Below the pieces are notes generated by a model. That model was not told the origin of the DNA and did no database searches. It saw nothing but the letters and a program-made list of their open reading frames with translations. Position numbers and translations under genes: made by a program. DNA of 16,188 nucleotides from Faecalibacterium prausnitzii. Lineage in GTDB: Bacteria; Bacillota; Clostridia; Oscillospirales; Ruminococcaceae. The stretch lies in assembly GCA_002313795.1 (NCBI GenBank), contig DCCL01000233.1:284-16471 (forward strand). Direction: 5' to 3'. Shown here one piece after another: positions 2,006 through 13,754 of this stretch. Numbering within the stretch: position 1 is the first letter of the stretch; each line of letters begins with the position of its first letter.

Positions 2006-3316
2006 TTACAGGATGTCGATGTACTCACCGGCCAGAGCCTTGTTCATGCTGCGGACAGCGCAGAACTTGCCGCACATGGAGCAGGTATCGCTGTGGTCAT
2101 CCTCGGGCAGACGGGCGTCGCGGATGGCCTTGGCGGTCTCGGGGTCGAGAGCGCAGGCAAACTGTGCATCCCAGTCCAGCACGCGGCGGGCGTCGCCCAT
2201 CTTGTCGTCGATGTCCCGGGCGTGAGGAATGCCCTTGGCGATATCGGCGGCGTGAGCAGCGATCTTGGAGGCCACGATGCCCTGCTTGACGTCGTCCACA
2301 TTGGGAAGAGCCAGATGCTCGGCGGGGGTGACGTAGCACAGGAAGGCTGCGCCGCTCATGGCAGCGACAGCGCCGCCGATGGCAGCGGTGATGTGGTCGT
2401 AGCCGGGAGCGATATCGGTCACCAGAGGTCCGAGGACATAGAAGGGAGCGCCCATGCAGATGCTCTTCTGGACTTCCATGTTGGCGGCGACCTGATTCAG
2501 AGGCACATGGCCCGGGCCCTCCACCATGACCTGAACGTTGTGAGACCAGGCGCGCTTGGTCAGCTCGCCCAGACGCACCAGCTCCTCGATCTGGCAGACA
2601 TCAGTGGCGTCAGCCAGACAGCCGGGACGGCAGGCGTCGCCCAGAGAGATGGTCACATCGTGCTCGGCGCAGATCTCGCAGATCTCGTCGAAGTGCTCAT
2701 AGAAGGGGCTCTCGTTGCCGGTCATGCACATCCAGGCGAAGACCAGGGAACCGCCGCGGCTGACGATGTTCATCTTCCGCTTGTGCTTGCGGATCTGGTC
2801 GATGGTCTTGCGGGTGATGCCGCAGTGCAGGGTGACGAAGTCCACGCCGTCCTCTGCGTGCAGACGCACCACATCCACGAAGTCCTGAGCGGTCAGGGTA
2901 GCCAGGTCGCGCTGATAGTGGATGACGGAGTCATACACAGGCACGGTGCCGATCATAACGGGGCACTCGTGGGTCAGCTTCTGACGGAAGGGCTGGGTGT
3001 TGCCGTGGCTGGACAGGTCCATGATGGCCTCAGCGCCCATGTTGACAGCGCTCATGACCTTCTGCATCTCGATATTGTAGTCCTTGCAGTCGCGGGAGAC
3101 GCCCAGGTTGACGTTGATCTTGGTGCGCAGCATGGAGCCGATGCCCTCGGGATCCAGGCACTCGTGGTGCTTGTTGGCCGGGATGGCGACCTTGCCCTCA
3201 GCCACCAGCTGACGGATCTCCTCGACGGTGCGGTACTCCTTCTTGGCCACGATCTCCATCTGAGGGGTGACGATGCCCTTGCGTGCGGCATCCATCTGGG
3301 TAGTGTAAGTCTGCAT
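2006..3316 (-). CDS. thiC: Phosphomethylpyrimidine synthase ThiC
   Basis: Non-canonical radical-SAM enzyme that rearranges aminoimidazole ribotide into HMP phosphate, the pyrimidine moiety of thiamine. At 436 residues it is the short form without the extra N-terminal domain of the roughly 630-aa E. coli enzyme. Diagnostic stretches include [100 protein letters not shown] and [21 protein letters not shown]. The cluster cysteines are C412, C415 and C419 (CSMCGKFC). The spacing is CX2CX3C rather than the CX2CX4C quoted for E. coli-type ThiC. The start at 3316 has GGAGG just upstream and is 34 bases from the thiD stop. The ThiC-like BzaA/B/F enzymes are an alternative, but the thiamine operon argues against them. 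Confidence 0.96.
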
Positions 3317-3350
3317 TTGAAATCCTCCGAAAATTACACTCTGATTCTCT

Positions 3351-4181
3351 TTATATCTGTACAGCGTCCGGGACGCCGTGCATCCAGTTTTCAACGCCCA
3401 CACCACCCAACGTGTGATCCAGCGGGCCGGAGCCATGGCCCAGATCAAGCTGGGCGTTCAGTGCGTCGGTGAGGTAGGCCTTGGCCCGGGCGATGGCATC
3501 CACCAGCTCAAAGCCCTTGGCAAGGTTGGCCGCAATGGCACTGGACAGGGTGCAGCCGGTGCCGTGGGTGTTGGGGTTGTCGATGCGCTGACCGGCAAAC
3601 CAGTGTTCGCCGCCCTGGCAGAACACCAGCAGGTCGTCGGCATCGGTGTCGCTGTGGCCGCCCTTGAGCAGCACATTGCAGTGGTAATTGTCCGCAATGG
3701 CCCGGGCCGCAGACACCATATCGCTGCGGTCATGGATGGACATCCCGGACAGAACTTCTGCCTCGTGGCGGTTGGGAGTGATGACCTCAGCCAGCGGGAA
3801 CAGCTCCCGGCAGAGGGTGCGCACAGCATCCGATGCGATGAGGTCGGAACCGGAAGTGGCTACCATCACGGGATCCACCACGATGTGCTCTGCCTTGTAG
3901 AAGCGGAGCCGCTCGGCAATGGTCTCGATGAGGGGGGCAGAGGACACCATGCCGATTTTGACCGCGTCGGGGCGGATATCGGTGAACACGGCATCGATCT
4001 GCTGGGCCAGAAATTCGGGCGTCACCTCATAGATGCCGGAGACGCCGGTGGTGTTCTGGGCGGTCAGGGCGGTGATGGCGCTCATGGCGAAGACGCCGTT
4101 CATGGTCATGGCTTTGAGGTCGGCCTGGATGCCGGCACCGCCGCTGGAATCGCTGCCCGCGATGGTAAGTGCAGTTTTCAT
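3351..4181 (-). CDS. thiD: Hydroxymethylpyrimidine/phosphomethylpyrimidine kinase ThiD
   Basis: Phosphorylates HMP and then HMP-P to HMP-PP, the pyrimidine donor for ThiE. The 276 residues match the usual ThiD length (about 265-280). Ribokinase-fold signatures are [20 protein letters not shown] (6-25), the [13 protein letters not shown] motif, [12 protein letters not shown], and the C-terminal anion-hole/catalytic loop [18 protein letters not shown]. The ATG at 4181 is preceded by AAAGGAG; it matches the family N-terminus, whereas the open frame runs 33 codons further upstream without similarity. It lies 59 bases after the thiE stop and 34 bases before the thiC start, so it is inside the operon. 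Confidence 0.96.
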
Positions 4182-4240
4182 GAAGAACTCCTTTGGGTGA
4201 GAGATGCTTTTGGCTTCCCCGTTCGGGAAAACCGGAATGG

Positions 4241-4876
4241 TTATACGATCTGTTCGGCCAGTGCTTTCAGTTCCCTGCACTCAGCCTCGATATTTTCAGC
4301 ACTGAAGATGGCGCTCACGAGGGCGACGCCGTCAGCGCCGGAACCCTTCAGCTTGAGGATATTGTCTTTATGGATGCCGCCGATGGCCACCACAGGCACA
4401 TCCACGGAGTTGCAGATGGCCTGCAGCTCGCCCTCGGGCAGCACATCCACATCCGTCTTGGTGTGGGTGGAGAAGGCTGCGCCTACGCCCAGATAATCGG
4501 CACCGTGTGCCACGGCCTGCTGTGCTTCCTCCACGGAATGGGCCGACACACCGATGATCATATCGGGGCCTACCTTGGCCCGGACATCTGCGGCGGCCAT
4601 GTCTTCCTGCCCCACATGGATGCCGTCGGCATGGCACTTGATGGCGATGTCCACATTGTCATTGATAATGAAGGGGACACCGTAGCTGCGGCAGAGGGCG
4701 GAAAGCTCCATGGCCTCCTTGAGAAAATCTTCCTCATCCAGCTCCTTTTCCCGCAGCTGGACGCAGGTGACGCCGCCCTTCAGGGCGGCTTCCACCTGCT
4801 GGAAAAGGGTCTCGCGGCCCGTCCATGCCCGGTCGGTGACGGCATAGAGAAGCATGGTGTGTTTATCGCATTTCAT
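4241..4876 (-). CDS. thiE: Thiamine-phosphate synthase ThiE
   Basis: Couples HMP-PP with hydroxyethylthiazole phosphate to give thiamine phosphate. It is 211 residues long, a TIM-barrel protein of normal family length. Signatures are LYAVTDRAW (10-18), CVQLREKELDEEDF (38-51, with R42 and K44 for pyrophosphate binding), ADGIHVGQEDM, IIGVSAHSVEEAQQA, GADYLGVGAAFSTHTKTD and VVAIGGIHKDNI. The ATG at 4876 lies inside the 3' end of thiM (14-base overlap) with GAGGAGG upstream, which suggests translational coupling. In the operon it joins the products of ThiD and ThiM. Confidence 0.96.
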   Translation of the reverse strand: MKCDKHTMLLYAVTDRAWTGRETLFQQVEAALKGGVTCVQLREKELDEEDFLKEAMELSALCRSYGVPFIINDNVDIAIKCHADGIHVGQEDMAAADVRAKVGPDMIIGVSAHSVEEAQQAVAHGADYLGVGAAFSTHTKTDVDVLPEGELQAICNSVDVPVVAIGGIHKDNILKLKGSGADGVALVSAIFSAENIEAECRELKALAEQIV

Positions 4877-5684
4877 AGCGTGCGCCCTCCTCGAGCTGCT
4901 CCGGCGTCATATTATAGATGGCGTCGATGATATAATTGCGGTAGGTAGCGCTGCCGTCCAGTCTGGTCAGGCGGCTGTGGGCGATCTCGCCCGCAAGGCC
5001 CATGGCACAGACGGCAGTAGCAGTGGCTTCCAGAATGCTGTCCGGGTTGGCGGCGCAGAAGGCAGCCGTCAGGGCCGAGAGCTGGCAGCCGGTGCCGGTG
5101 ACAGCGCTCATCATGGGGTGGCCGTTCCGGATGCAGTAAGCTTTCTCGCCGTCAGTTACGATATCGATGGCACCGGTCACAGCCACGACGGCCCCGGTGC
5201 GGGCGGCAAAAGCTTTTGCAAAGGCCACAGCGCTGTCCAGCGTCTCGTCGGTCACCTTGTCTGCCGTGTCGGCATCCACGCCCTTGGTGGTGCCGCTGCC
5301 TGCGGCCAGCGTCCGGATCTCGGAGATGTTGCCCCGGATGACGGTAGGCTTGGCCTCCCGCAGCAGCTGGAGAGCAGTCTCGGTGCGGAGATGAGAAGCG
5401 CCTGCACCCACCGGGTCGAGGATGACCGGACGGCCCAGTTTTTTCGCGGTGCGGCCGGCCAGAAGCATGGAGGGGATGGTGCGGCTGTTCAGGGTGCCGA
5501 TGTTGATGTTCAGCCCGGCACACAGGGTGGTGATGTCCTCCACCTCGGCGGCATCATCTGCCATGATAGGGGAGGCACCGCAGGCCAGCACCATGTTGGC
5601 GCAATCGTTGACGGTAACGTAGTTGGTGATGTTGTGGACGAGGGGGCTTTTGGCCCGCACGTTGGCAAAGACATTCTGGAACAT
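4863..5684 (-). CDS. thiM: Hydroxyethylthiazole kinase ThiM
   Basis: Phosphorylates 4-methyl-5-(2-hydroxyethyl)thiazole so that salvaged thiazole can enter the ThiE reaction. The 273 residues are normal for the family. Visible signatures are PLVHNITNYVTVNDCANM (14-31), ACGASPIMADD (34-44), NIGTLNSRTI (61-70), PVILDPVGAGAS (86-97), VIRGNISEI (115-123) and SAVTGTGCQLSALTAAF (193-209), with C200 in the GTGC catalytic loop. The ATG at 5684 is 19 bases after the thiW stop and has AGGAG upstream. Its 3' end overlaps thiE. Its pairing with thiW points to salvage of external thiazole. Confidence 0.97.
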   Translation of the reverse strand: MFQNVFANVRAKSPLVHNITNYVTVNDCANMVLACGASPIMADDAAEVEDITTLCAGLNINIGTLNSRTIPSMLLAGRTAKKLGRPVILDPVGAGASHLRTETALQLLREAKPTVIRGNISEIRTLAAGSGTTKGVDADTADKVTDETLDSAVAFAKAFAARTGAVVAVTGAIDIVTDGEKAYCIRNGHPMMSAVTGTGCQLSALTAAFCAANPDSILEATATAVCAMGLAGEIAHSRLTRLDGSATYRNYIIDAIYNMTPEQLEEGARYEMR

Positions 5685-5703
5685 GGCTGTAGTTACTCCT
5701 TCC

Positions 5704-6219
5704 TCAGTTCAGGCTGGACTGCATGGCCCGCAGGGCACCCATCCGCTCAAGGCTGAACAGCAGCACACCGGCGATGATGGCACCGCCTGCAGTGGAGACC
5801 AGGAAGGGCACGATGTAGGCGTAGAAAGCGATGTCGCCGGCGCTCTTGCCCATCAGCAGGATGGCGACGGGGTAGGCGCAGAGACCGCCCAGGATGGAGG
5901 TGCCGAACACCTCACCCACCAGAGTGGGCAGCAGCTTCTTGGTCTTGTCAAAGACGATGCCGCAGAGCAGGGCACCGAACATGCTGCCGGGGAAGGCCAT
6001 CAGGCTGCCCAGACCCAGCAGGTTGCGCAGCAGGGAGGCCACAAAGGCCACGCCTACGCCGTAGTAGGGCCCCAGCAGAACGGCGCAGAGGATGTTGACC
6101 ATGTGCTGCACAGGGGCGCACTTGCTGCCGAACACGGGGAAGGAGAACACGCTGCCCACAACAGCGACGGCACAGAACATTCCGGCAAGGGCCAGCTTTT
6201 TTGCAGAATAGTGTTTCAT
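5704..6219 (-). CDS. thiW: ECF transporter S component ThiW (thiazole uptake)
   Basis: Membrane substrate-capture subunit of an energy-coupling-factor importer, predicted to take up the thiazole precursor of thiamine. The 171 residues are mostly hydrophobic, with about five to six helices. The family signature is clear: KLALAGMFCAVAVVG at the N-terminus, GSKCAPVQHMVNILCAVLLG, LLRNLLGLGSLMAFPGSMFG, and LVGEVFGTSILGGL. The ATG at 6219 follows AAAAAGGAGC; the longer open frame upstream is the untranslated leader. No EcfA/EcfT genes are nearby, so it presumably shares a general module encoded elsewhere (group II ECF). It is first in the operon, directly under TPP control. Confidence 0.92.
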   Translation of the reverse strand: MKHYSAKKLALAGMFCAVAVVGSVFSFPVFGSKCAPVQHMVNILCAVLLGPYYGVGVAFVASLLRNLLGLGSLMAFPGSMFGALLCGIVFDKTKKLLPTLVGEVFGTSILGGLCAYPVAILLMGKSAGDIAFYAYIVPFLVSTAGGAIIAGVLLFSLERMGALRAMQSSLN

Positions 6220-6462
6220 AGTGAGAAGCTCCTTTTTAAAAAATTCAGGCGGAAGCAGGTGGGGAAAGATCCCGCTGCTCCCGCACACAAACAGACCTGA
6301 CGCCCCCGAAAAGGCACAGGTACACGGAAGAAGCGGTCGAGACTTGCTGGTCTCCTCTCACGCCGGAACACGGCTTCCCATCGCACATCTTTCACCCGAA
6401 GCTCAGGGCGCTCCCCCTCAGCCGGGCCGCAGCCGTTGCCGGGGCTGCAGAGCCGGTGATAA
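6220..6462 (-). other. Long structured leader between riboswitch terminator and thiW
   Basis: About 240 bases separate the riboswitch terminator from thiW, far more than a ribosome site needs. On the minus strand several stems can be drawn: CAGCC/GGCTG near 6446-6429, GAGAC/GTCTC near 6353-6338, ACCTG/CAGGT near 6321-6294, and GCGGGAGCAG/CTGCTTCCGC (6284-6275 with 6258-6249, one G-U). The last stem is followed five bases later by TTTTTT and then immediately by AAAAAGGAG of thiW. I do not recognise a known RNA family. GC-rich sequence forms stems readily, so function is uncertain. Confidence 0.45.
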
Positions 6463-6498
6463 CAAAAAACAGGAGATGCCTTCTGCGGCATCTCCTGT
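6463..6498 (-). terminator. Intrinsic terminator controlled by the TPP riboswitch
   Basis: On the minus strand ACAGGAGATGCC (6498-6487) pairs perfectly with GGCATCTCCTGT (6480-6469) around a six-base loop, followed by TTTTTG. It lies about 20 bases after the aptamer and before thiW, the classic position of a riboswitch terminator. TPP binding should favour it and shut the operon off. Confidence 0.92.
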
Positions 6499-6520
6499 AA
6501 AAATCCATAAACACGGTTAT

Positions 6521-6607
6521 GACTTCCTACGGCGGCATTATCCGCATCAGGTAATAGGGTCGGAGTTCGAGAACTCCCTCTCAGCCTGCTTTCACAAGCT
6601 CCCCTGT
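6521..6607 (-). promoter_or_regulatory. TPP (thiamine pyrophosphate) riboswitch
   Basis: The minus strand carries the THI-box core in order: GGGG start, P3 hairpin GCTT-GTGA-AAGC, then GGCTGAGAG. An optional hairpin GGAGTT-CTCG-AACTCC (P3a) follows, then GACCCT closing P2. The second half is ACCTGATGCGGATAATGCCG with P5 GCGG/CCGC, and finally CGTAGG pairing with CCT of P4. The P1 helix is not obvious and may be weak or slightly displaced, so the outer limits are approximate. A terminator follows. The aptamer senses thiamine pyrophosphate and represses thiW-thiM-thiE-thiD-thiC. Confidence 0.96.
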
Positions 6608-6624
6608 ATTTGTTTGTCGGGAGT

Positions 6625-6763: not shown

Positions 6764-8059
6764 ATGGGTCTTGTCAGAGCAGCTCTGGGCGCAGCATCCG
6801 GCGTGATGGGCGACCAGTGGAAGGAATATTTTTATTGCGATGCCCTCCCGGCGGAGGTGCTGGCAGTCAAGGGACAGAAGAAAGTCTCCGGCCGTTCGGC
6901 CAACCGCCGCGGCACTGAGAACATCATCACCGACGGCTCCATCGTGGCCGTGGCCGAGGGCCAGTGCGCCCTCATCGTGGAGCAGGGCAAGGTGGTAGAC
7001 CTCTGCGCCGAGGCGGGCGAGTATACCTATAATACAGGCACTCAGCCCTCTCTGCTGAGCAAGGGCCTTGCCAAGAACATCGATGAGGTGTTTGCCGAGA
7101 TCGGCAAGCGGTTCACCTTCGGCGGGCAGGCAGCCACCGACCAGCGCATCTACTACATCAACACCAAAGAGCTGATGGGCAACAAGTACGGCACCCCCAG
7201 CCCGGTGCCCTTCCGTGTGGTGGATCAGCGGGCCGGCATCGACATCGATGTGGGCATCCGCTGCTTCGGTGAGTACAGCTACCGCATCGTCAACCCCATC
7301 CTGTTTTACACCAATGTCTGTGGAAATGTGGAAAACGAGTACACCCGGGACGCTCTGGAAGGCCAGATGCGCACCGAGATGATGACAGCATTGCAGCCTG
7401 CCTTTGCCCGCATCAGCGAGATGGGCATCCGGTATTCTGCTCTGCCCGGCCACACTGCCGAGCTGGCCGACGCCCTGAACCAGGAGCTGTCTGCCAAGTG
7501 GAGCAAGCTGCGGGGCATCGAGATCGTCTCCCTCGGCGTGTCCGGCGTCAAGGCCAGCGAAGAGGACGAGCAGATGATCAAGGAGCTGCAGCGCAGCGCC
7601 GCCTTTATGGACCCCAGCCGCGCCGCAGCTCATCTGGTGGGTGCACAGGCCGCTGCCATGCAGGCCGCTGCTTCCAACACCACTGCCGGCCCGGCCATGG
7701 CCTTTATGGGGATGAATCAGGCCGCTGCTGCAGGCGGCGTCAATGCACAGGCCCTGTATCAGATGGGGGCACAGCAGCAGACTGCTGCTCCTGCCCCGGC
7801 CCCTGCTGCCCCGGCAGGCAGCTGGACCTGCTCCTGCGGGCAGACCGGCAACACTGGCAAGTTCTGCACCGCCTGCGGCAAGCCCCGTCCGGAAGAGGGC
7901 TGGGTGTGCAGCTGCGGCACCCACAATACCGGTAAATTCTGCTCGGAGTGCGGCAAACCCCGCCCCGCAGCCAAGTGCTCCAACTGCGGCTGGACCCCTG
8001 CCGACCCGTCCAACCCGCCCAAGTTCTGCCCCGAGTGCGGTAAGCCCTTCGGCGTTTGA
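6764..8059 (+). CDS. SPFH-domain protein with three C-terminal zinc ribbons (YdjI-like)
   Basis: The protein has 431 residues. Residues about 20-280 form an SPFH/virion-core-like domain (IITDGSIVAVAEGQCALIVEQGKVVD, FGGQAATDQRIYYINTKE, VVDQRAGIDIDVGIRCFGEYSY, LNQELSAKWSKLRGIEIVSLGVSGV, here named in pieces). An Ala/Gln-rich linker (about 285-350) leads to three zinc ribbons: CSCG...CTACG, CSCG...CSECG and CSNCG...CPECG (352-431). The first two use a CXC knuckle rather than CXXC. SPFH proteins scaffold membrane-associated assemblies; B. subtilis YdjI links PspA to membrane partners YdjG and YdjH. The next two genes resemble those partners, so a membrane-stress complex is inferred. The ATG is preceded by AAAGGAG. 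The exact role here is unknown. Confidence 0.85.
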   Translation: MGLVRAALGAASGVMGDQWKEYFYCDALPAEVLAVKGQKKVSGRSANRRGTENIITDGSIVAVAEGQCALIVEQGKVVDLCAEAGEYTYNTGTQPSLLSKGLAKNIDEVFAEIGKRFTFGGQAATDQRIYYINTKELMGNKYGTPSPVPFRVVDQRAGIDIDVGIRCFGEYSYRIVNPILFYTNVCGNVENEYTRDALEGQMRTEMMTALQPAFARISEMGIRYSALPGHTAELADALNQELSAKWSKLRGIEIVSLGVSGVKASEEDEQMIKELQRSAAFMDPSRAAAHLVGAQAAAMQAAASNTTAGPAMAFMGMNQAAAAGGVNAQALYQMGAQQQTAAPAPAPAAPAGSWTCSCGQTGNTGKFCTACGKPRPEEGWVCSCGTHNTGKFCSECGKPRPAAKCSNCGWTPADPSNPPKFCPECGKPFGV

Positions 8060-8074
8060 AAGGGGGCCTGAAAG

Positions 8075-9160
8075 ATGGCAGAAAAGACAACGAATTATCA
8101 GTGCCCGGCCTGTACAGGCCCGCTGCGGTTCGACAGCGCCTCCGGCAAGCTGGTCTGCGACTACTGCGGCTCTACCTATGAAGTGAGCGAGGTGGAAGCC
8201 CTCTACGGCGAGAAACAGGCTCAGGCCGACAAGGCCGCAGAAGCTGCCGAAAAAGCTGCGTCCAACGGCCCGGTCTGGAGTGAAAAAGAGACGGGCGGCC
8301 TCAGCAGCCGCACCTGCACCTCCTGCGGTGCCGAGCTGGTCTGCGGCCCGGAGACCGCCGCCACCACCTGCCCTTACTGCGGCAACCCCATGGTACTGGG
8401 CGGTCAGCTTTCCGGCAAGCTCAAGCCGGAGTACATCATTCCCTTCAAGATGGACAAAAAGACGGCCATCGCCAACCTGAAAAAGTATTATAAGGGCAAA
8501 GCGTTCCTGCCCAAAGCCTTCAAGGACGATAACCACATCGAAGAGATCCAGGGCGTGTATGTGCCCTTCTGGCTCTACGATGGCCGGATGGAAGCCCGGG
8601 GCGCCTATAAAGGCGAGATCAGCGAGAGTCACCGGGAGGGCGATTACATCGTCACCACCACAAAGCACTTCGACATCGCCCGCGTGGGCGACGCGGATTT
8701 CGTCCAGGTGCCGGTGGATGGCTCCAGCAAGATGCCGGATGCCCATATGGACGCCATTGAGCCCTTTGATTATAAGGAGCTCAAGCCCTTCTCCACAGCC
8801 TATCTGCCCGGCTTTCTGGCCGACCGGTACGACGAGGACGACAAGAAATGCGCCGCCCGCGCCGTGAGCCGGATGCAGAACAGCACCGCCGCAGCCCTGC
8901 ATAGTACGCTGGGCGGCTACACCGGCCTGCAGACCCTCTCGGAGCAGGTGGACCTGCGGCAGCTGGAACCTCACTACGCCCTGCTCCCGGTCTGGATGCT
9001 CCACACCCGCTGGAAAGACAAGGACTTCCTCTTCGCCATGAACGGCCAGACCGGTCGGCTCATCGGTGACCTGCCGGTGGATAAGGGCCGGGTGGCGGCA
9101 TGGTTTGCCGGCATCAGCATCCCGCTGATGATCCTGACGGCCCTGTTCCTGTTGCTGTGA
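8075..9160 (+). CDS. Zinc-ribbon protein with C-terminal membrane anchor (YdjG-like)
   Basis: The protein has 361 residues. Two zinc ribbons open it: CPAC (10-13) with CDYC about 15 residues on, and, after an Ala/Glu-rich helix (about 45-65), CTSC with CPYC. The middle contains YIIPFKMDKKTAIANLKKYY and IQGVYVPFWLYDG, typical of the TFIIB-type zinc-ribbon membrane proteins of Firmicutes. One transmembrane helix closes the protein (VAAWFAGISIPLMILTALFL). It starts 15 bases after the SPFH gene stop with a GGGGG-rich ribosome site and ends 16 bases before the TPM gene. By analogy with B. subtilis ydjG it would help recruit the SPFH protein to the membrane. The molecular activity is not known. Confidence 0.82.
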   Translation: MAEKTTNYQCPACTGPLRFDSASGKLVCDYCGSTYEVSEVEALYGEKQAQADKAAEAAEKAASNGPVWSEKETGGLSSRTCTSCGAELVCGPETAATTCPYCGNPMVLGGQLSGKLKPEYIIPFKMDKKTAIANLKKYYKGKAFLPKAFKDDNHIEEIQGVYVPFWLYDGRMEARGAYKGEISESHREGDYIVTTTKHFDIARVGDADFVQVPVDGSSKMPDAHMDAIEPFDYKELKPFSTAYLPGFLADRYDEDDKKCAARAVSRMQNSTAAALHSTLGGYTGLQTLSEQVDLRQLEPHYALLPVWMLHTRWKDKDFLFAMNGQTGRLIGDLPVDKGRVAAWFAGISIPLMILTALFLLL

Positions 9161-9176
9161 GAGGGGGAACGGTAAA

Positions 9177-9965
9177 ATGAAAACATTGAAAAAACTGTCT
9201 GCCCTTCTGACTGCGGCCCTGCTCTGCATGGTCATCGTCCTGCCCGCAGGCGCTGCGGCCCCGCTGGTGCGGGATGAATGCGGCGTGTTCGACGCCGATA
9301 CGCTGGCACAGCTGGAACAGAAGGCAGAGAGCGCTTCGGAAGGCCATGATGTGGACGTCTACCTCCTGATGGTGGATGACATCGGGGACACTGACCAGCG
9401 CGACTACGCAAAAAACTATTACATCACCAACGGCCTCGGCTATGGCGATGAAAAGAGCGGCATCCTGTTCATGGTGGCAGTGGGTTCCCGCAAGTATGTC
9501 ACCATCACCTATGGCGGCGGCGTCACGGCTTTTACCGACTACCGCATCCAGGAGCAGGAAAATGACATCGTATCCCACCTCTCGGACAACGACTGGAAGG
9601 GTGCGGCAGAGACCTACCTCGATATGTGCGACCACGCGCTGAACTATTACGCCAAGCACGGGGAGCCCATCGATGAGGACAATGATATTGGCTGGGATAG
9701 CTTGGCCATCGCCATGCTGTTCCCCCTCGGCATCTCTGCGGTCATCTGCTTCATCCTCTACGGTCAGATGAAAACGGCCAAAAAGAAGACCCAGGCCAAC
9801 GACTATATGCCCGGCTTTGAGCTGCGGGTCAAGCGCGACTGCTACACCCACACCACCCGGGAGCGTACCTATGACCCGCCGAAGAAGGAGTCCAGCTCTT
9901 CTTCCGGCGGCGGTTCCTCTACGGATTCGAGCGGCTTCGGCGGTTCCTCCGGCGGCTCGTTCTGA
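9177..9965 (+). CDS. TPM-domain membrane protein (YdjH/YgcG-like)
   Basis: The protein has 262 residues. A signal peptide (1-27, ending PAGAAA) is followed by a TPM domain, about residues 28-165, containing VRDECGVFDADTLAQLEQKA, DVDVYLLMVDD, GYGDEKSGILFMVAVGSRK and YVTITYGGGVTAFTDYRIQ. A membrane helix follows (LAIAMLFPLGISAVICFILY), then a basic cytoplasmic stretch and a Ser/Gly-rich tail ending GFGGSSGGSF, usual for YgcG proteins. Third gene of the operon, 16 bases after the zinc-ribbon gene, ribosome site GAGGGGG. B. subtilis YdjH is the closest functional analogue I know. The extracytoplasmic TPM domain may sense or act on the envelope, but that is inference. Confidence 0.85.
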   Translation: MKTLKKLSALLTAALLCMVIVLPAGAAAPLVRDECGVFDADTLAQLEQKAESASEGHDVDVYLLMVDDIGDTDQRDYAKNYYITNGLGYGDEKSGILFMVAVGSRKYVTITYGGGVTAFTDYRIQEQENDIVSHLSDNDWKGAAETYLDMCDHALNYYAKHGEPIDEDNDIGWDSLAIAMLFPLGISAVICFILYGQMKTAKKKTQANDYMPGFELRVKRDCYTHTTRERTYDPPKKESSSSSGGGSSTDSSGFGGSSGGSF

Positions 9966-10025: not shown

Positions 10026-10775
10026 TTACAGCATCTTGGAGAGGAATGCCTTCAGGCGGGGATGCTTGGGGTTGGTGAAGAGCTCCTGCGGGGGCTCGTC
10101 CTCCTGGATTTTGCCATCATCGATGAAGATGACGCGGTTGGACACTTCGCGGGCAAAGCCCATTTCGTGGGTAACGACCAGCATGGTGATGCCGGTGTGG
10201 GCCAATTCCTTCATCAGTTCCAGAACCTCGCCTACCATCTCGGGGTCGAGTGCACTGGTGGGCTCGTCAAAGAGGATGACGTCCGGGTCCATGGCCAGTG
10301 CACGGGCAATGGCGATGCGCTGCTGCTGACCACCGGAAAGGCTCTTGGGGTAGGCGTTGGCCTTGTCGGCCAGACCCACGCGGGCCAGCAGCTCGTCAGC
10401 ACGGGCGGAGATGGCGGCCTTGTCTTTGAGCTTGAGCAGGGTAGGGGCCAGCTCGAGGTTCTTCTTGACGGTCAGGTGGGGGAAGAGGTTGAAGTGCTGG
10501 AACACCATGCCCATCTTCTGGCGGTGGAGGTCGATATTCACCGACTTGCTGGCCAGATCCACGCCGTCGAAGAAGATAGCACCGGAGGTGGGCTCCTCCA
10601 GCATGTTCAGGCTGCGCAGCAGAGTGGACTTGCCGGAACCGGAGGGGCCGATGATGGCCACCACCTCGCCCTTGTGGATGTCCAGGTCACAGCCGTCCAG
10701 CGCGTGAACGGTGCCGTGGTTGTACTCCTTGACCAGCTTTTTCACGGAGATGAGAACTTTACTGCTTATCGCCAC
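10026..10775 (-). CDS. Polar amino acid ABC transporter ATP-binding protein (GlnQ-type)
   Basis: Cytoplasmic ATPase that drives amino-acid uptake with the permease and binding protein upstream. The 249 residues are normal for the GlnQ/ArtP/HisP group. Walker A is GPSGSGKS (43-50), the Q-loop is [10 protein letters not shown] (91-100), the signature is LSGGQQQR (146-153), Walker B is [13 protein letters not shown] (166-178) and the switch histidine is H203 in VVTHEM. The start is a GTG at 10775 with AAGGAG eight bases upstream. It lies inside the permease gene, overlapping it by 17 bases, so translation is probably coupled. Substrate cannot be read from this subunit. Confidence 0.95.
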
Positions 10776-11490
10776 GGCGCATTCTCCTTTCTATGGCCTC
10801 GATCGCTTTGGAGGCGGGGTAGTTGATGCAGAAGTAGACCAGCGCGGCCAGCACATAGGGCGCCAGCGTGATGTAGCTGTTGCCGGAGACGGTTTGGGCG
10901 GTGTACATGATCTCCGCCATGCCCAGCACAGAGCAGATGGAGGATTCCTTCACCATGGTGACCACCTCATTGGCCAGAGCGGGGAGGACGTTCTTGATGG
11001 CCTGGGGCAGCACCACCAGCCGCATGGACTGCCAGCCGGAAAGACCCAGCGAGCGGGCGGCCTCTGTTTGCCCCTTGTCCACGGCCAGAATACCGGCGCG
11101 GAATATCTCGGCCACATACGCCGAGCTGTTCAGCGCCAGCGCCACCACGCCGGGGATGAAGCGGTTGATGGCGATAAAGCCGAACAGAAGGGTGCGGGGC
11201 AGGGTGATGTAGTGGAACAGTCCGAAGTAGATGATGGACAGCTGCACCAGCATGGGGGTGGAACGGAACACGGCGATATACGCGCCGGCGAACCACTTGA
11301 TGGGCTTGACCTTGCTCAGCCGCATCATAGCCAACAGCAGAGCGGGGATCACAGCCAGCAACACGGACACAACCGCCAGCAGCAGGGTGTATTCAAAGCC
11401 GCGGACGAAGGCGGAGCCGTACTTGGGCAGGAACGAGAAGTTGAAGAAGTTGGTGTTGTCCATGTTGACAAACAGATCATTCCACGACAT
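10759..11490 (-). CDS. Polar amino acid ABC transporter permease (HisM/GlnP family)
   Basis: Integral membrane subunit, 243 residues, about five helices. The HisM-type start [20 protein letters not shown] (24-43) and the [10 protein letters not shown] motif (75-84) are followed by the EAA loop [20 protein letters not shown] (143-162), which contacts the ATPase. The segment [21 protein letters not shown] (173-193) is typical of amino-acid permeases. Only one permease is present, so a homodimer is likely. The ATG at 11490 has AAAGGA upstream. It lies 87 bases after the binding-protein stop, with a stem-loop in between that may set relative expression. Confidence 0.94.
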
Positions 11491-11525
11491 AGACGAGACA
11501 TCCTTTCAAAAGTTCTGATACACAG

Positions 11526-11561
11526 CGCAAGCGTGCAAAGCCGGGGCTTTGCACGTTTGCG
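11526..11561 (-). promoter_or_regulatory. Intercistronic stem-loop between binding protein and permease
   Basis: Bases 11526-11542 and 11545-11561 are inverted repeats matching at 16 of 17 positions with a two-base loop. No U-tract follows on either strand. Such structures after binding-protein genes often protect the upstream mRNA and let the binding protein be made in excess; that role here is inferred. Confidence 0.75.
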
Positions 11562-11577
11562 GTGGTTGGCGGGATTA

Positions 11578-12459
11578 TCAGCCCACGTAGCTCAGACCCA
11601 CGTTGCCGTCCAGCACCAGCAGGTCGATGGTGCCGTTCTTCAGCTCAGTGACCAGAGTGGGAACCAGGGATTCCAGAACCATGCCGTTGGCGGCGTCGGG
11701 GAACATATCGGCGGCGGCCATGGCCTTGGTGGTGTTCTTCTGAGCGCCGATGATGACGGAGGCCTGATTGATGTCGTCAACGGTCTTGTACTTGTCGGCA
11801 TTGGAGGCCTTCACCAGAATGACGGGAGGCAGGTCGGTGTAGTAGGGGTCGGAGAAGTCGCAGGCCAGGGCACGCTCATCGGTGTACTCGCAGGCGGCCA
11901 GCACCATGTCGAAGTCGCCGTTGCTCAGGGAGGTCACCAGATTATCGAAGTTCATGGACTCGATCTGCAGCTCCATGCCCATGGACTCGGCGATGTACTT
12001 GCCCACTTCCACGTCGATACCGGCGTACTCGGTCATAGCGGCATCAGCGAAGAACTCGTAGGGGGGATAGTCGGGGCTGGTGCCCATGACCAGAACGGGC
12101 TTGTCGCTGGCGGCGGCATCCTCGTCGGCAGCGGCCAGATCGGAGGAAACGGAATCGGGGGTGTACGTCTCCTGAGAGGCGACCTTGTCCTCGATCTCCT
12201 TGAGCAGTGCGCCGTCGTTGGCGGTCAGCTCAGCAATGGCCTTGTTGATGCCGGGCAGCAGACCCTTGGGGTCGCCCTTCTGCACCAGAACGCGATAGGG
12301 CTCCGTCTCGCCCCAATCCACCACATTCTCCAGAACCACCAGAGAATCGTCGGTGTCGGCGGCGGTGTCATCCTTCTTGGTGTCGTCAGCCTTCTGGCCG
12401 CAGGCCACCAGGCTCAGAGCCATGACCAGCGCCAGCAGCATTGCCATAAACTTTTTCAT
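11578..12459 (-). CDS. Amino-acid-binding lipoprotein of ABC transporter, circularly permuted
   Basis: Substrate-binding protein (family 3 type) of the amino-acid importer encoded downstream. It has 293 residues, with a lipoprotein signal ending LVAC (C20). What follows is unusual. Residues 39-93 (SLVVLENVVDWGETEPYRVL and on to LLKEIEDKV) match the C-terminal end of a normal binding protein. A Ser/Ala/Asp-rich linker (94-120) leads to the normal domain start VLVMGTSPDYPPYEFF (122-137). The domain then continues through GIDVEVGKYIA, FDNLVTSLSNGDFDMVLA and the carboxylate-binding TDER (R196) to DLLVLDGNVGLSYVG (D284). It stops exactly where the C-terminal segment would normally continue. No remnant of that segment lies in the 87 bases downstream. 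The start has GAAAGGAAG upstream. Confidence 0.93.
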   Translation of the reverse strand: MKKFMAMLLALVMALSLVACGQKADDTKKDDTAADTDDSLVVLENVVDWGETEPYRVLVQKGDPKGLLPGINKAIAELTANDGALLKEIEDKVASQETYTPDSVSSDLAAADEDAAASDKPVLVMGTSPDYPPYEFFADAAMTEYAGIDVEVGKYIAESMGMELQIESMNFDNLVTSLSNGDFDMVLAACEYTDERALACDFSDPYYTDLPPVILVKASNADKYKTVDDINQASVIIGAQKNTTKAMAAADMFPDAANGMVLESLVPTLVTELKNGTIDLLVLDGNVGLSYVG

Positions 12460-12792: not shown

Positions 12793-13698
12793 TTACATGT
12801 CGATAAGACGGGCGGCGTAGAGGTAGGTGCGGGCGTAGTAGCTCTCGTACAGGGAGCTGATGATCACGCCGCTGCTGGTGCTGGAATGGATAAACTGCCC
12901 TCCGCCCAGATAGATGCCCACATGACCGATGCCGCTGCCGCCGGTGGCGAAGAACACCAGATCGCCGGGTGCACGCTCCGCGGTGGTCACGCTGCGGCAC
13001 ATGCGGTACTGGCTGGTAGCGCCGTGGGGCAGGCTGATGCCGAAGGCACCGAACACCTTCATGGTGAAGCCGGAGCAGTCGATCCCGCTGCGGCTGGTGC
13101 CGCCGTAGCGGTACGGGGTGTCCAGATAGCTGTACGCCTCGGCGATGACATCCTCCAGCAGGGTGTTGGTGGCGGCGGTGCCCTCGTAATCCTCATAGCG
13201 CACGGGCTGGCAGTACTCGGACAGGACGTAGCCGGTATCGCTGCCGTAGGCCACCTGATACCACTCATCGTCCACTATGTCCAGCAGACGGGCGGCCTTG
13301 CCATCGAAGATGATGCGCAGGCGCTGCGCGTCGGTGCTGGGTTCGGCGCGAAGAGAAATGTAGGAATTGCAGTCCACCAGAACACCGGTGTTTTCCTTCA
13401 GGAAGTTCTCCTTGCGGAGCGCCTCCGTCTCCTGTACCAGCGCCTGAGCGGAAAGCTGGGTCAGGGACAGCGTATCGCCGTCCAGCAGGCCGGCCTCCTC
13501 CGCCAGACGCAGACCGTCGCCGGTCTGAAGGGCGGTAGCGGAGCCGGACACAACACCGCTGCCGGCCAGCGCTTCCACGGCGGCCGTATAGCCGGCGGTG
13601 TCGATGGGCGTCGTCTCCTCCGCGTTGGCGGCGGTGACAGCCCCGGAGAAAAGCAGCAGACTGGACAGACCCAGCGCCGCGATCTGTTTTCCGAACAT
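12793..13698 (-). CDS. Secreted SH3b-NlpC/P60 peptidoglycan endopeptidase
   Basis: Predicted exported cysteine peptidase cutting cell-wall stem peptides. It has 301 residues. The signal peptide is 1-26 (hydrophobic IAALGLSSLLLFSGAVTA, cleavage after ANA). Residues about 30-100 are an Ala/Leu-rich helical region with no family I recognise. Residues about 104-163 are an SH3b wall-binding domain (TGVLVDCNSYISLRAEPSTD ... GYVLSEYC). Residues about 180-301 are NlpC/P60, with C208 in SGIDCSGF, H259 in GIGHVGIYLGG and H271 in FIHSST as catalytic candidates. The start at 13698 is chosen for GGAAGG eight bases upstream and for the signal peptide beginning directly; 17 further codons are open upstream. 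Divergent from the AraC gene. Confidence 0.92.
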   Translation of the reverse strand: MFGKQIAALGLSSLLLFSGAVTAANAEETTPIDTAGYTAAVEALAGSGVVSGSATALQTGDGLRLAEEAGLLDGDTLSLTQLSAQALVQETEALRKENFLKENTGVLVDCNSYISLRAEPSTDAQRLRIIFDGKAARLLDIVDDEWYQVAYGSDTGYVLSEYCQPVRYEDYEGTAATNTLLEDVIAEAYSYLDTPYRYGGTSRSGIDCSGFTMKVFGAFGISLPHGATSQYRMCRSVTTAERAPGDLVFFATGGSGIGHVGIYLGGGQFIHSSTSSGVIISSLYESYYARTYLYAARLIDM

Positions 13699-13754
13699 GG
13701 GTATTACCTTCCATCGCATTGATTTCGCCGGGGGTAAGGTACCCGACAACCGAT

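What the first reader, a model, noticed from the sequence alone, without database searches (positions are those of the whole stretch)
11578..12459. Naturally circularly permuted amino-acid-binding lipoprotein
Seen: after the lipobox (C20), residues 39-93 read SLVVLENVVDWGETEPYRVL ... GLLPGINKAIAEL ... LLKEIEDKV, the sequence that normally ends a family 3 solute-binding protein. The normal beginning (MGTSPDYPPYEFF) comes only at residue 125, after an acidic Ser/Ala linker. The protein stops at DLLVLDGNVGLSYVG, where the N-terminal segment would continue. Known: in such proteins lobe 1 is built from both chain ends, so moving the last strand and helices to the front can keep the fold. The ligand residues R196 and D284 are intact and the gene sits in an intact transporter operon, so it is probably functional. 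Inference: this changes where the lipid anchor and tether attach, and it may affect docking to the permease.
Basis: partly seen in the sequence, partly recalled or inferred. Interest (0 to 1): 0.85.

Follow-up and report, generated by a model that had tools for sequence, protein, structure and literature searches.

The report
Circularly permuted solute-binding lipoprotein
A bacterium's nutrient-catching lipoprotein has its sequence cut and rejoined in a different order, close relatives carry the uncut version in the same operon, and similar rearrangements appear to have arisen several times in related bacteria.

Summary
The 293-aa lipoprotein at 11578-12459 (-) is a family 3 solute-binding protein (SBP) whose canonical C-terminal segment (about residues 38-97) lies between the lipobox and the canonical N-terminus. 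Moving it back raises the profile score from 193.2 to 229.5 bits; 500 shuffles of it reach at most 207.7. All 120 listed homologues have this order, as do three genomes of one genus, one on a 1.5 Mb contig. Four genomes of that genus have the canonical order at about 79% identity before the same permease and ATPase. Permuted rows form one clade (100/99): a recent, in-place event. AlphaFold2 gives a confident fold (pLDDT 87.7). The cut lies in lobe 2, so the lipid anchor should move there (inference). Permuted family 3 SBPs recur: 58 genomes found, 57 cut at one of two loops, and a single origin is rejected. The only natural permuted SBP found in print is the sugar-binding Tp0684. Function, ligand and advantage are untested.

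The parts
11578..12459 (-). circularly permuted family 3 solute-binding lipoprotein gene, 293 aa
12400..12459 (-). lipoprotein signal peptide and lipobox Cys20 (residues 1-20)
   Evidence: sequence; lipobox by motif
12349..12399 (-). N-terminal tether (residues 21-37)
   Evidence: sequence; pLDDT under 50 at 14-35
12169..12348 (-). canonical C-terminal segment, now first (about residues 38-97): last lobe 2 strand, second hinge strand, lobe 1 C-terminal helix
   Evidence: profile and shuffle test; canonical orthologues end with it; strands 40-42 and 55-60, helix 68-94 in the model; lobe names recalled
12103..12168 (-). acidic Ser/Ala linker joining the old C-terminus to the old N-terminus (about residues 98-119)
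   Evidence: sequence; resembles the post-lipobox linker of canonical orthologues by eye
11581..12102 (-). canonical N-terminal lobe 1 part, first hinge and most of lobe 2 (residues 120-293)
   Evidence: PF00497; model 122-293 aligns to GlnH 1wdn 4-166
10759..11490 (-). permease gene (HEQRo_perm_3TM), 243 aa
   Evidence: 85-93% identical next to canonical and permuted orthologues
10026..10775 (-). ATPase gene of the polar amino acid transporter type, 249 aa
   Evidence: synteny
11523..11564 (-). inverted repeat between the SBP and permease genes; similar repeats seen by eye in canonical and permuted relatives
12793..13749 (-). NlpC/P60 protein gene upstream, also found upstream in L001, L002, L003 and L048

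Best explanation
The gene encodes a working amino-acid-type SBP of an ABC importer that has undergone a recent, nearly lossless circular permutation in place. Shown: the order, its conservation, canonical sister genes in the same operon, one origin for this clade, and a confident predicted fold. Inferred: the old C- and N-termini (both in lobe 1) are joined by a flexible acidic linker. The new termini lie in a lobe 2 loop before the last lobe 2 strand. The segment folds back into its usual place, so binding and closing stay the same, while the lipid anchor now tethers lobe 2. The most likely origin is duplication and in-frame fusion of the gene (stop of copy 1 lost, read into the linker of copy 2), then loss of the redundant N-part of copy 1 and C-part of copy 2. 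Only one permease gene lies in the operon; if the permease works as a homodimer, the SBP can dock either way round, which may be why a change of tethered lobe is tolerated. The same kind of permutation has happened repeatedly in family 3 SBPs of this class of bacteria.
For: Profile and shuffle tests. All 120 listed of 2348 homologues (the query itself included) carry the order; one of them, P0108, is a probable chimera. Of 32 genomes of the genus, 3 have the permuted gene and 4 the canonical orthologue at about 79% identity. The same permease (85-93%) and ATPase (68-72%) follow in all seven loci. The tree gives one permuted clade, 100/99, one change, among canonical orthologues. Flanks are shared: upstream, window against canonical L003 scores 45 and against L005 22 (0 of 1000 shuffles as high in either); downstream, permuted L001 and L002 against L003 score 33 (0 of 1000 each). 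omega is below 1 in all six permuted pairs. Model pLDDT 87.7, pTM 0.81. ORFs holding several SBP domains exist in relatives (L047, L027, L171), so duplicated and fused forms occur. Recurrence.
Against: No experiment. No coordinates, PAE or permutation-aware superposition were available. The C-terminal segment evolves faster than the core in each of the six permuted pairs (omega 0.18-0.68 on 54 codons against 0.05-0.21), whereas in the two distant canonical pairs it does not (0.19 against 0.24-0.25); this may mean weaker constraint on the moved segment. Several flank comparisons are not significant or weak: upstream L001 and L002 against both canonical loci, downstream against L005. In L002 the ATPase match stops at residue 175 of 249 with a change of frame, perhaps a sequence error. 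No duplicated intermediate of this orthologue was found, but only the best 120 proteins of limited length were seen. The ligand is not known.
Confidence: 0.87

Rival explanations
1. The chain is permuted but works as a domain-swapped dimer: residues 38-97 of one molecule complete another molecule.
For: T. maritima ArgBP, among the solved relatives, is a dimer with a swapped C-terminal helix (recalled). A linker of about 22 residues would allow a swap.
Against: The monomer is predicted with pTM 0.81 and pLDDT 93-98 in residues 41-100. Only the monomer was modelled, so this is weak evidence.
Confidence: 0.1
2. The segment was moved by cut-and-paste or by fission and fusion, not by duplication and deletion.
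For: No tandem intermediate of this orthologue was seen; these models are in print (PMC3320104, passages).
Against: The permuted L002 protein keeps the canonical C-terminus to its last codon and then reads on into a linker resembling the canonical post-lipobox linker (by eye). Multi-SBP ORFs exist in relatives. Split halves were not searched for.
Confidence: 0.25
3. Assembly artefact or decayed gene.
For: Two listed relatives (P0108, P0144) do look like assembly chimeras, their tail also being joined to unrelated proteins.
Against: Permuted clusters stand for up to 221 contigs and reach contigs of 593 kb; G400 has it on a 1.5 Mb contig; omega is below 1 and the operon is intact.
Confidence: 0.01

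Closest known systems
Canonical family 3 SBP lipoproteins (PF00497), nearest here the L003-L006 orthologues; solved relatives 5t0w AncCDT-1, 4h5f, 4i62, 4ymx, GlnH 1wdn
   Same: Sequence (about 79% to the orthologues), predicted fold of residues 118-293, conserved R196 and D284, operon with permease and ATPase
   Different: Order of segments; new termini and lipid anchor in lobe 2; old termini joined by a linker
Tp0684/MglB-2 of Treponema pallidum, proposed 'Type Ic / Cluster Bc' (PMC4990184; passages seen, part of the abstract among them)
   Same: A natural circular permutation of an SBP lipoprotein clustered with its transporter genes; homologues in gut Gram-positives; its authors also raise anchoring as a possible reason
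   Different: Sugar-binding Type I (cluster B) protein; there the first three N-lobe strands lie at the C-terminus, with 13% identity in an attempted alignment of the moved part; no canonical sister at the same locus is described in the passages I saw
Tandem SBD fusions such as 6h30 (GlnPQ, name recalled)
   Same: Across the domain boundary the chain reads C-segment then N-segment, as in the permuted form
   Different: Two complete domains, not one permuted domain
Engineered circularly permuted binding proteins (permuted ribose-binding protein halves, PMC9815098, seen in a search listing only; mentioned in a passage of PMC10601554)
   Same: Show that SBP-type folds can be given new termini
   Different: Man-made

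Membership tests
SBP_bac_3 (PF00497) by sequence | Profile match above the gathering score | tested here: met
   95.7 bits against 26.4, residues 123-232
SBP_bac_3 (PF00497) by sequence | Conserved ligand Arg and Asp | tested here: met
   R196 invariant, D284 at least 90% of 95 rows; role recalled
Canonical-topology family 3 SBP | N-to-C order lobe 1N, lobe 2, lobe 1C | tested here: not met
   Last segment comes first
Canonical-topology family 3 SBP | Two-lobed SBP fold | tested here: inconclusive
Circularly permuted protein | Reordered sequence aligns better than native order | tested here: met
   with canonical controls and shuffles
Circularly permuted protein | Permutation-aware structural superposition over the full length | not testable with these tools
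   Only sequential aligners and no model coordinates
Type Ic / Cluster Bc SBPs (Tp0684) | Type I sugar-binding sequence with permuted N-lobe strands | tested here: not met
   The protein is a family 3 amino-acid-type SBP by sequence
Polar amino acid ABC importer operon | Adjacent permease and ATPase genes | tested here: met

The most novel reading that the evidence does not exclude
Circular permutation is a recurrent, convergent route of evolution in the amino-acid-type SBP lipoproteins of Clostridia: at least half a dozen changes of order, nearly all at two loops, both in lobe 2, and selected because they move the lipid anchor from lobe 1 to lobe 2, changing how the tethered receptor meets its permease. 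The window's gene would be the youngest case, with both orders alive in the same operon of one genus.
Probability: 0.35. Interest if true: 0.85.

Novelty: new variant of a known kind. Interest (0 to 1): 0.74.

Why it matters
Natural circular permutations are mostly known between distant proteins (my general knowledge). Here both orders exist at about 79% identity in the same operon of one genus, so the effect of a permutation on folding, binding, tethering and transport can be tested almost as in a matched pair. The recurrence at two loops of lobe 2 makes a general question testable: whether SBPs are under selection for which lobe carries the lipid anchor. Profile-based annotation hides the arrangement, because the family model matches only the core.

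Tried and rejected
First AlphaFold2 model with 20 close rows: too weak to use. C-terminal fragments of canonical proteins as extra alignment rows misaligned to the core and were left out. Sequential structure searches do not test residues 38-97. P0108 and P0144 (permuted front plus a whole canonical tail) were considered as evolutionary intermediates and rejected as probable assembly chimeras, because the same tail is also joined to unrelated proteins such as P0165, P0234 and P0235. The order-level sample (394 genomes) first seemed to hold only the centre genome; that was wrong: of ten hits with odd query coverage that I fetched, eight proved to be other permuted SBPs and two (L077, L078) were canonical. 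Literature: ten searches in the held open library showed no natural permuted family 3 SBP; passages of PMC9732360 and PMC10601554 concern a permuted GFP and engineered constructs. Subscription journals are mostly missing and listings were seen, not whole papers, so absence in print is not shown. Of the solved structures listed (60 of 103 and 60 of 112) only the tandem 6h30 spans a permuted order in its best stretch.

Full report
What is there. The gene at 11578-12459 (-) encodes a 293-residue lipoprotein followed by a permease gene and an ATPase gene of the polar amino acid importer type, with an NlpC/P60 gene upstream. No whole genome is held for the window. Pfam SBP_bac_3 matches only residues 123-232.

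Is it permuted? I built a profile from 43 canonical family 3 SBPs, with the close orthologues left out, and scored every cyclic shift of the mature protein. P0001's best single domain rises from 196.2 bits in the native order to 219.5 when cut before residue 101. The permuted L002 protein rises from 191.6 to 220.5. The canonical controls L005 and L003 are within 1.3 and 0.5 bits of their maximum in native order. Residues 120-292 alone score 193.2; followed by residues 37-96 they score 229.5, while 500 shuffles of the segment give 195.3 +- 2.1, at most 207.7. So the segment is the family's C-terminus, in another place.

Is it real? Of 2348 homologues the best 120 are listed, the query included, at 77-100% identity, and all 120 have the C-motif first; P0108 also has a second C-motif and is a probable chimera, and four lack the exact N-motif and were placed by eye. 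Of 160 proteins held after two searches, 146 are permuted, 12 canonical and 2 have both (142, 11 and 2 by pattern, the other five by eye). Permuted clusters stand for up to 221 contigs and reach a contig of 593 kb.

Canonical sisters. A scan of species genomes gave six loci: L001 and L002 are permuted, L003-L006 canonical at about 79% identity. All six lie in one genus of 32 genomes. There, 3 genomes have the permuted gene (G001, G002, G400; G400 on a 1.5 Mb contig), 4 have the canonical orthologue, 14 have only weaker matches and 11 have none at E 1e-20. In samples of the family (400 genomes) and order (394) the window's own permuted type was found only in members of this genus (G002 and G400, and G002). 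All seven loci have the same permease (85.5-92.6%) and ATPase downstream; in L002 the ATPase match breaks off at residue 175 with a change of frame. The NlpC gene is found upstream in L001, L002, L003 and L048, not in the held stretches of L004-L006, of which L004 is short. The 5' flank of the window matches canonical L003 (score 45) and L005 (22), with 0 of 1000 shuffles as high in either; the 3' flank of L001 and L002 matches L003 (33; 0 of 1000 each). Upstream of L001 and L002 there is no significant match to the canonical loci, and downstream matches to L005 are weak (26-65 of 1000 shuffles as high). Taken together the permutation happened in place.

How the ends map. By eye at DNA level (one local alignment), canonical and permuted genes agree up to the Tyr codon of GNVG..Y; the permuted gene then stops within two codons. 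Its new front resumes at the following canonical codons (ADQNDDLVVLE against ADTDDSLVVLE). The permuted L002 keeps the canonical C-terminus to its last codon (LDTYTPD against LDTYIPE) and reads on into a linker like the canonical post-lipobox linker. Almost nothing was lost. This fits permutation by duplication (model described in PMC3320104, passages), but a cut-and-paste origin is not excluded.

History and selection. In a tree of 46 rows (20 permuted, 12 canonical orthologues, 14 paralogues; permuted rows reordered in silico) the permuted rows are one clade with 100/99 support. The fork that joins it to the canonical orthologues is open, but the latter form one group in none of 200 bootstrap trees. 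omega (NG86) among four permuted genes is 0.05-0.21 in the core and 0.18-0.68 in the C-segment, on 54 codons; in two canonical pairs the C-segment (0.19) is not faster than the core (0.24-0.25). The moved segment may thus be under weaker constraint, or the estimate is noisy; this does not help the reading.

It recurs. Of ten hits of the order-level search with odd coverage, eight turned out to be other permuted SBPs (L070-L076, L079). A type A query over 299 phylum genomes (2 of its 30 listed loci permuted, L085 and L086, and two further hits fetched for their coverage, L120 and L121) and a type B query over 291 class genomes brought the total to 58 genomes with a permuted family 3 SBP, the three of the window's genus included. 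The cut is at profile columns 207-218 in 33 (type A, as in the window), at 136-153 in 24 (type B, start of lobe 2) and at about 172 in 1, out of 270 columns. In the class sample at least 45 of the 290 genomes other than the centre have one: 15 type B and 9 type A among the 30 listed loci (6 of the 30 canonical), all 20 regions fetched, which were picked because their coverage looked permuted, and G994. This is a lower bound from chosen hits, not a census. Some of these rest on weak segment scores (L173, L174). A permease gene lies in 12 of 13 permuted loci with flanks and in 19 of 20 short stretches; an ATPase gene was also seen in 11 of 13 and 13 of 20. Some lie on contigs of 2-5 Mb (L111; L155, L163, L171). 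A lipobox pattern is found in 55 of 58 permuted and 87 of 96 canonical proteins, so being a lipoprotein does not set them apart.

Independent origins. In a tree of 132 rows (94 canonical, 20 B, 17 A, 1 C) order changes at least 9 times by parsimony. Starred branches force at least 6 changes of the canonical label, 4 for A and 4 for B; these can be gains or reversions. Holding all type A rows together is rejected (p-AU 1.5e-39), as is holding all permuted rows together (p-AU 2.45e-05). The groups were set by the order before the tree was made, but some branches are long and the tool warns of that. The 20 later proteins (L155-L174) are not in this tree.

What is known. Tp0684/MglB-2 is a solved, naturally permuted sugar-binding SBP lipoprotein, for which a 'Type Ic' was proposed and anchoring raised as a possible reason (PMC4990184, passages). 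I found no natural permuted family 3 SBP in ten searches of the held library, nor among the listed solved structures, apart from the tandem domains of 6h30.

Verdict. A real, functional-looking, recently permuted SBP with canonical sisters in place, and one case of a recurrent pattern. New variant of a known kind; the advantage, if any, is open.

Noticed in passing
L070 (G358), L071 (G248), L072 (G134), L073 (G049), L086, L140-L144, L146, L147, L150, L152, L155-L170: Other family 3 SBPs permuted at the same loop as the window's (type A); those in the tree fall in three further clades.
   Followed up: yes
L074, L075, L076, L079, L085, L121, L125-L139, L171-L174: Family 3 SBPs permuted at the start of lobe 2 (type B): lobe 2 and the C-terminal part come first, lobe 1 N-part last; this would leave one lobe crossing instead of two (inference).
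   Followed up: partly
L120:3796-4617 (G868): A single SBP with a third cut site, near profile column 172.
   Followed up: no
L047 (G395) and L027 (G120): ORFs with several SBP domains in a row, in L047 three of them followed by a permease-like part (by eye); possible intermediates of permutation by duplication.
   Followed up: partly
L171:1-1461 (G1152): A further ORF with several SBP domains, partly in permuted order, next to a type B-like permuted SBP.
   Followed up: no
P0108 and P0144: Metagenome proteins with a permuted front and a whole canonical tail of the L063 type; the same tail is joined to unrelated proteins, so probably assembly chimeras.
   Followed up: yes
L002:7666-8439: The ATPase gene next to a permuted SBP changes frame after residue 175 of 249; sequence error or decay not resolved.
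   Followed up: no
window 11523-11564: Hairpin-forming inverted repeat between the SBP and permease genes; similar repeats are visible by eye in L001, L002, L003 and L005.
   Followed up: partly
window 2006-6615: Thiamine gene cluster (ThiC-, ThiD-, ThiE-, ThiM- and ThiW-like by eye) on the minus strand with a TPP riboswitch at 6507-6615.
   Followed up: no
window 6764-9965: 431-aa ORF with a zinc-ribbon-like C-terminus, a 361-aa zinc-ribbon-like protein and a 262-aa protein with a signal peptide, in a row on the plus strand; described by eye only.
   Followed up: no
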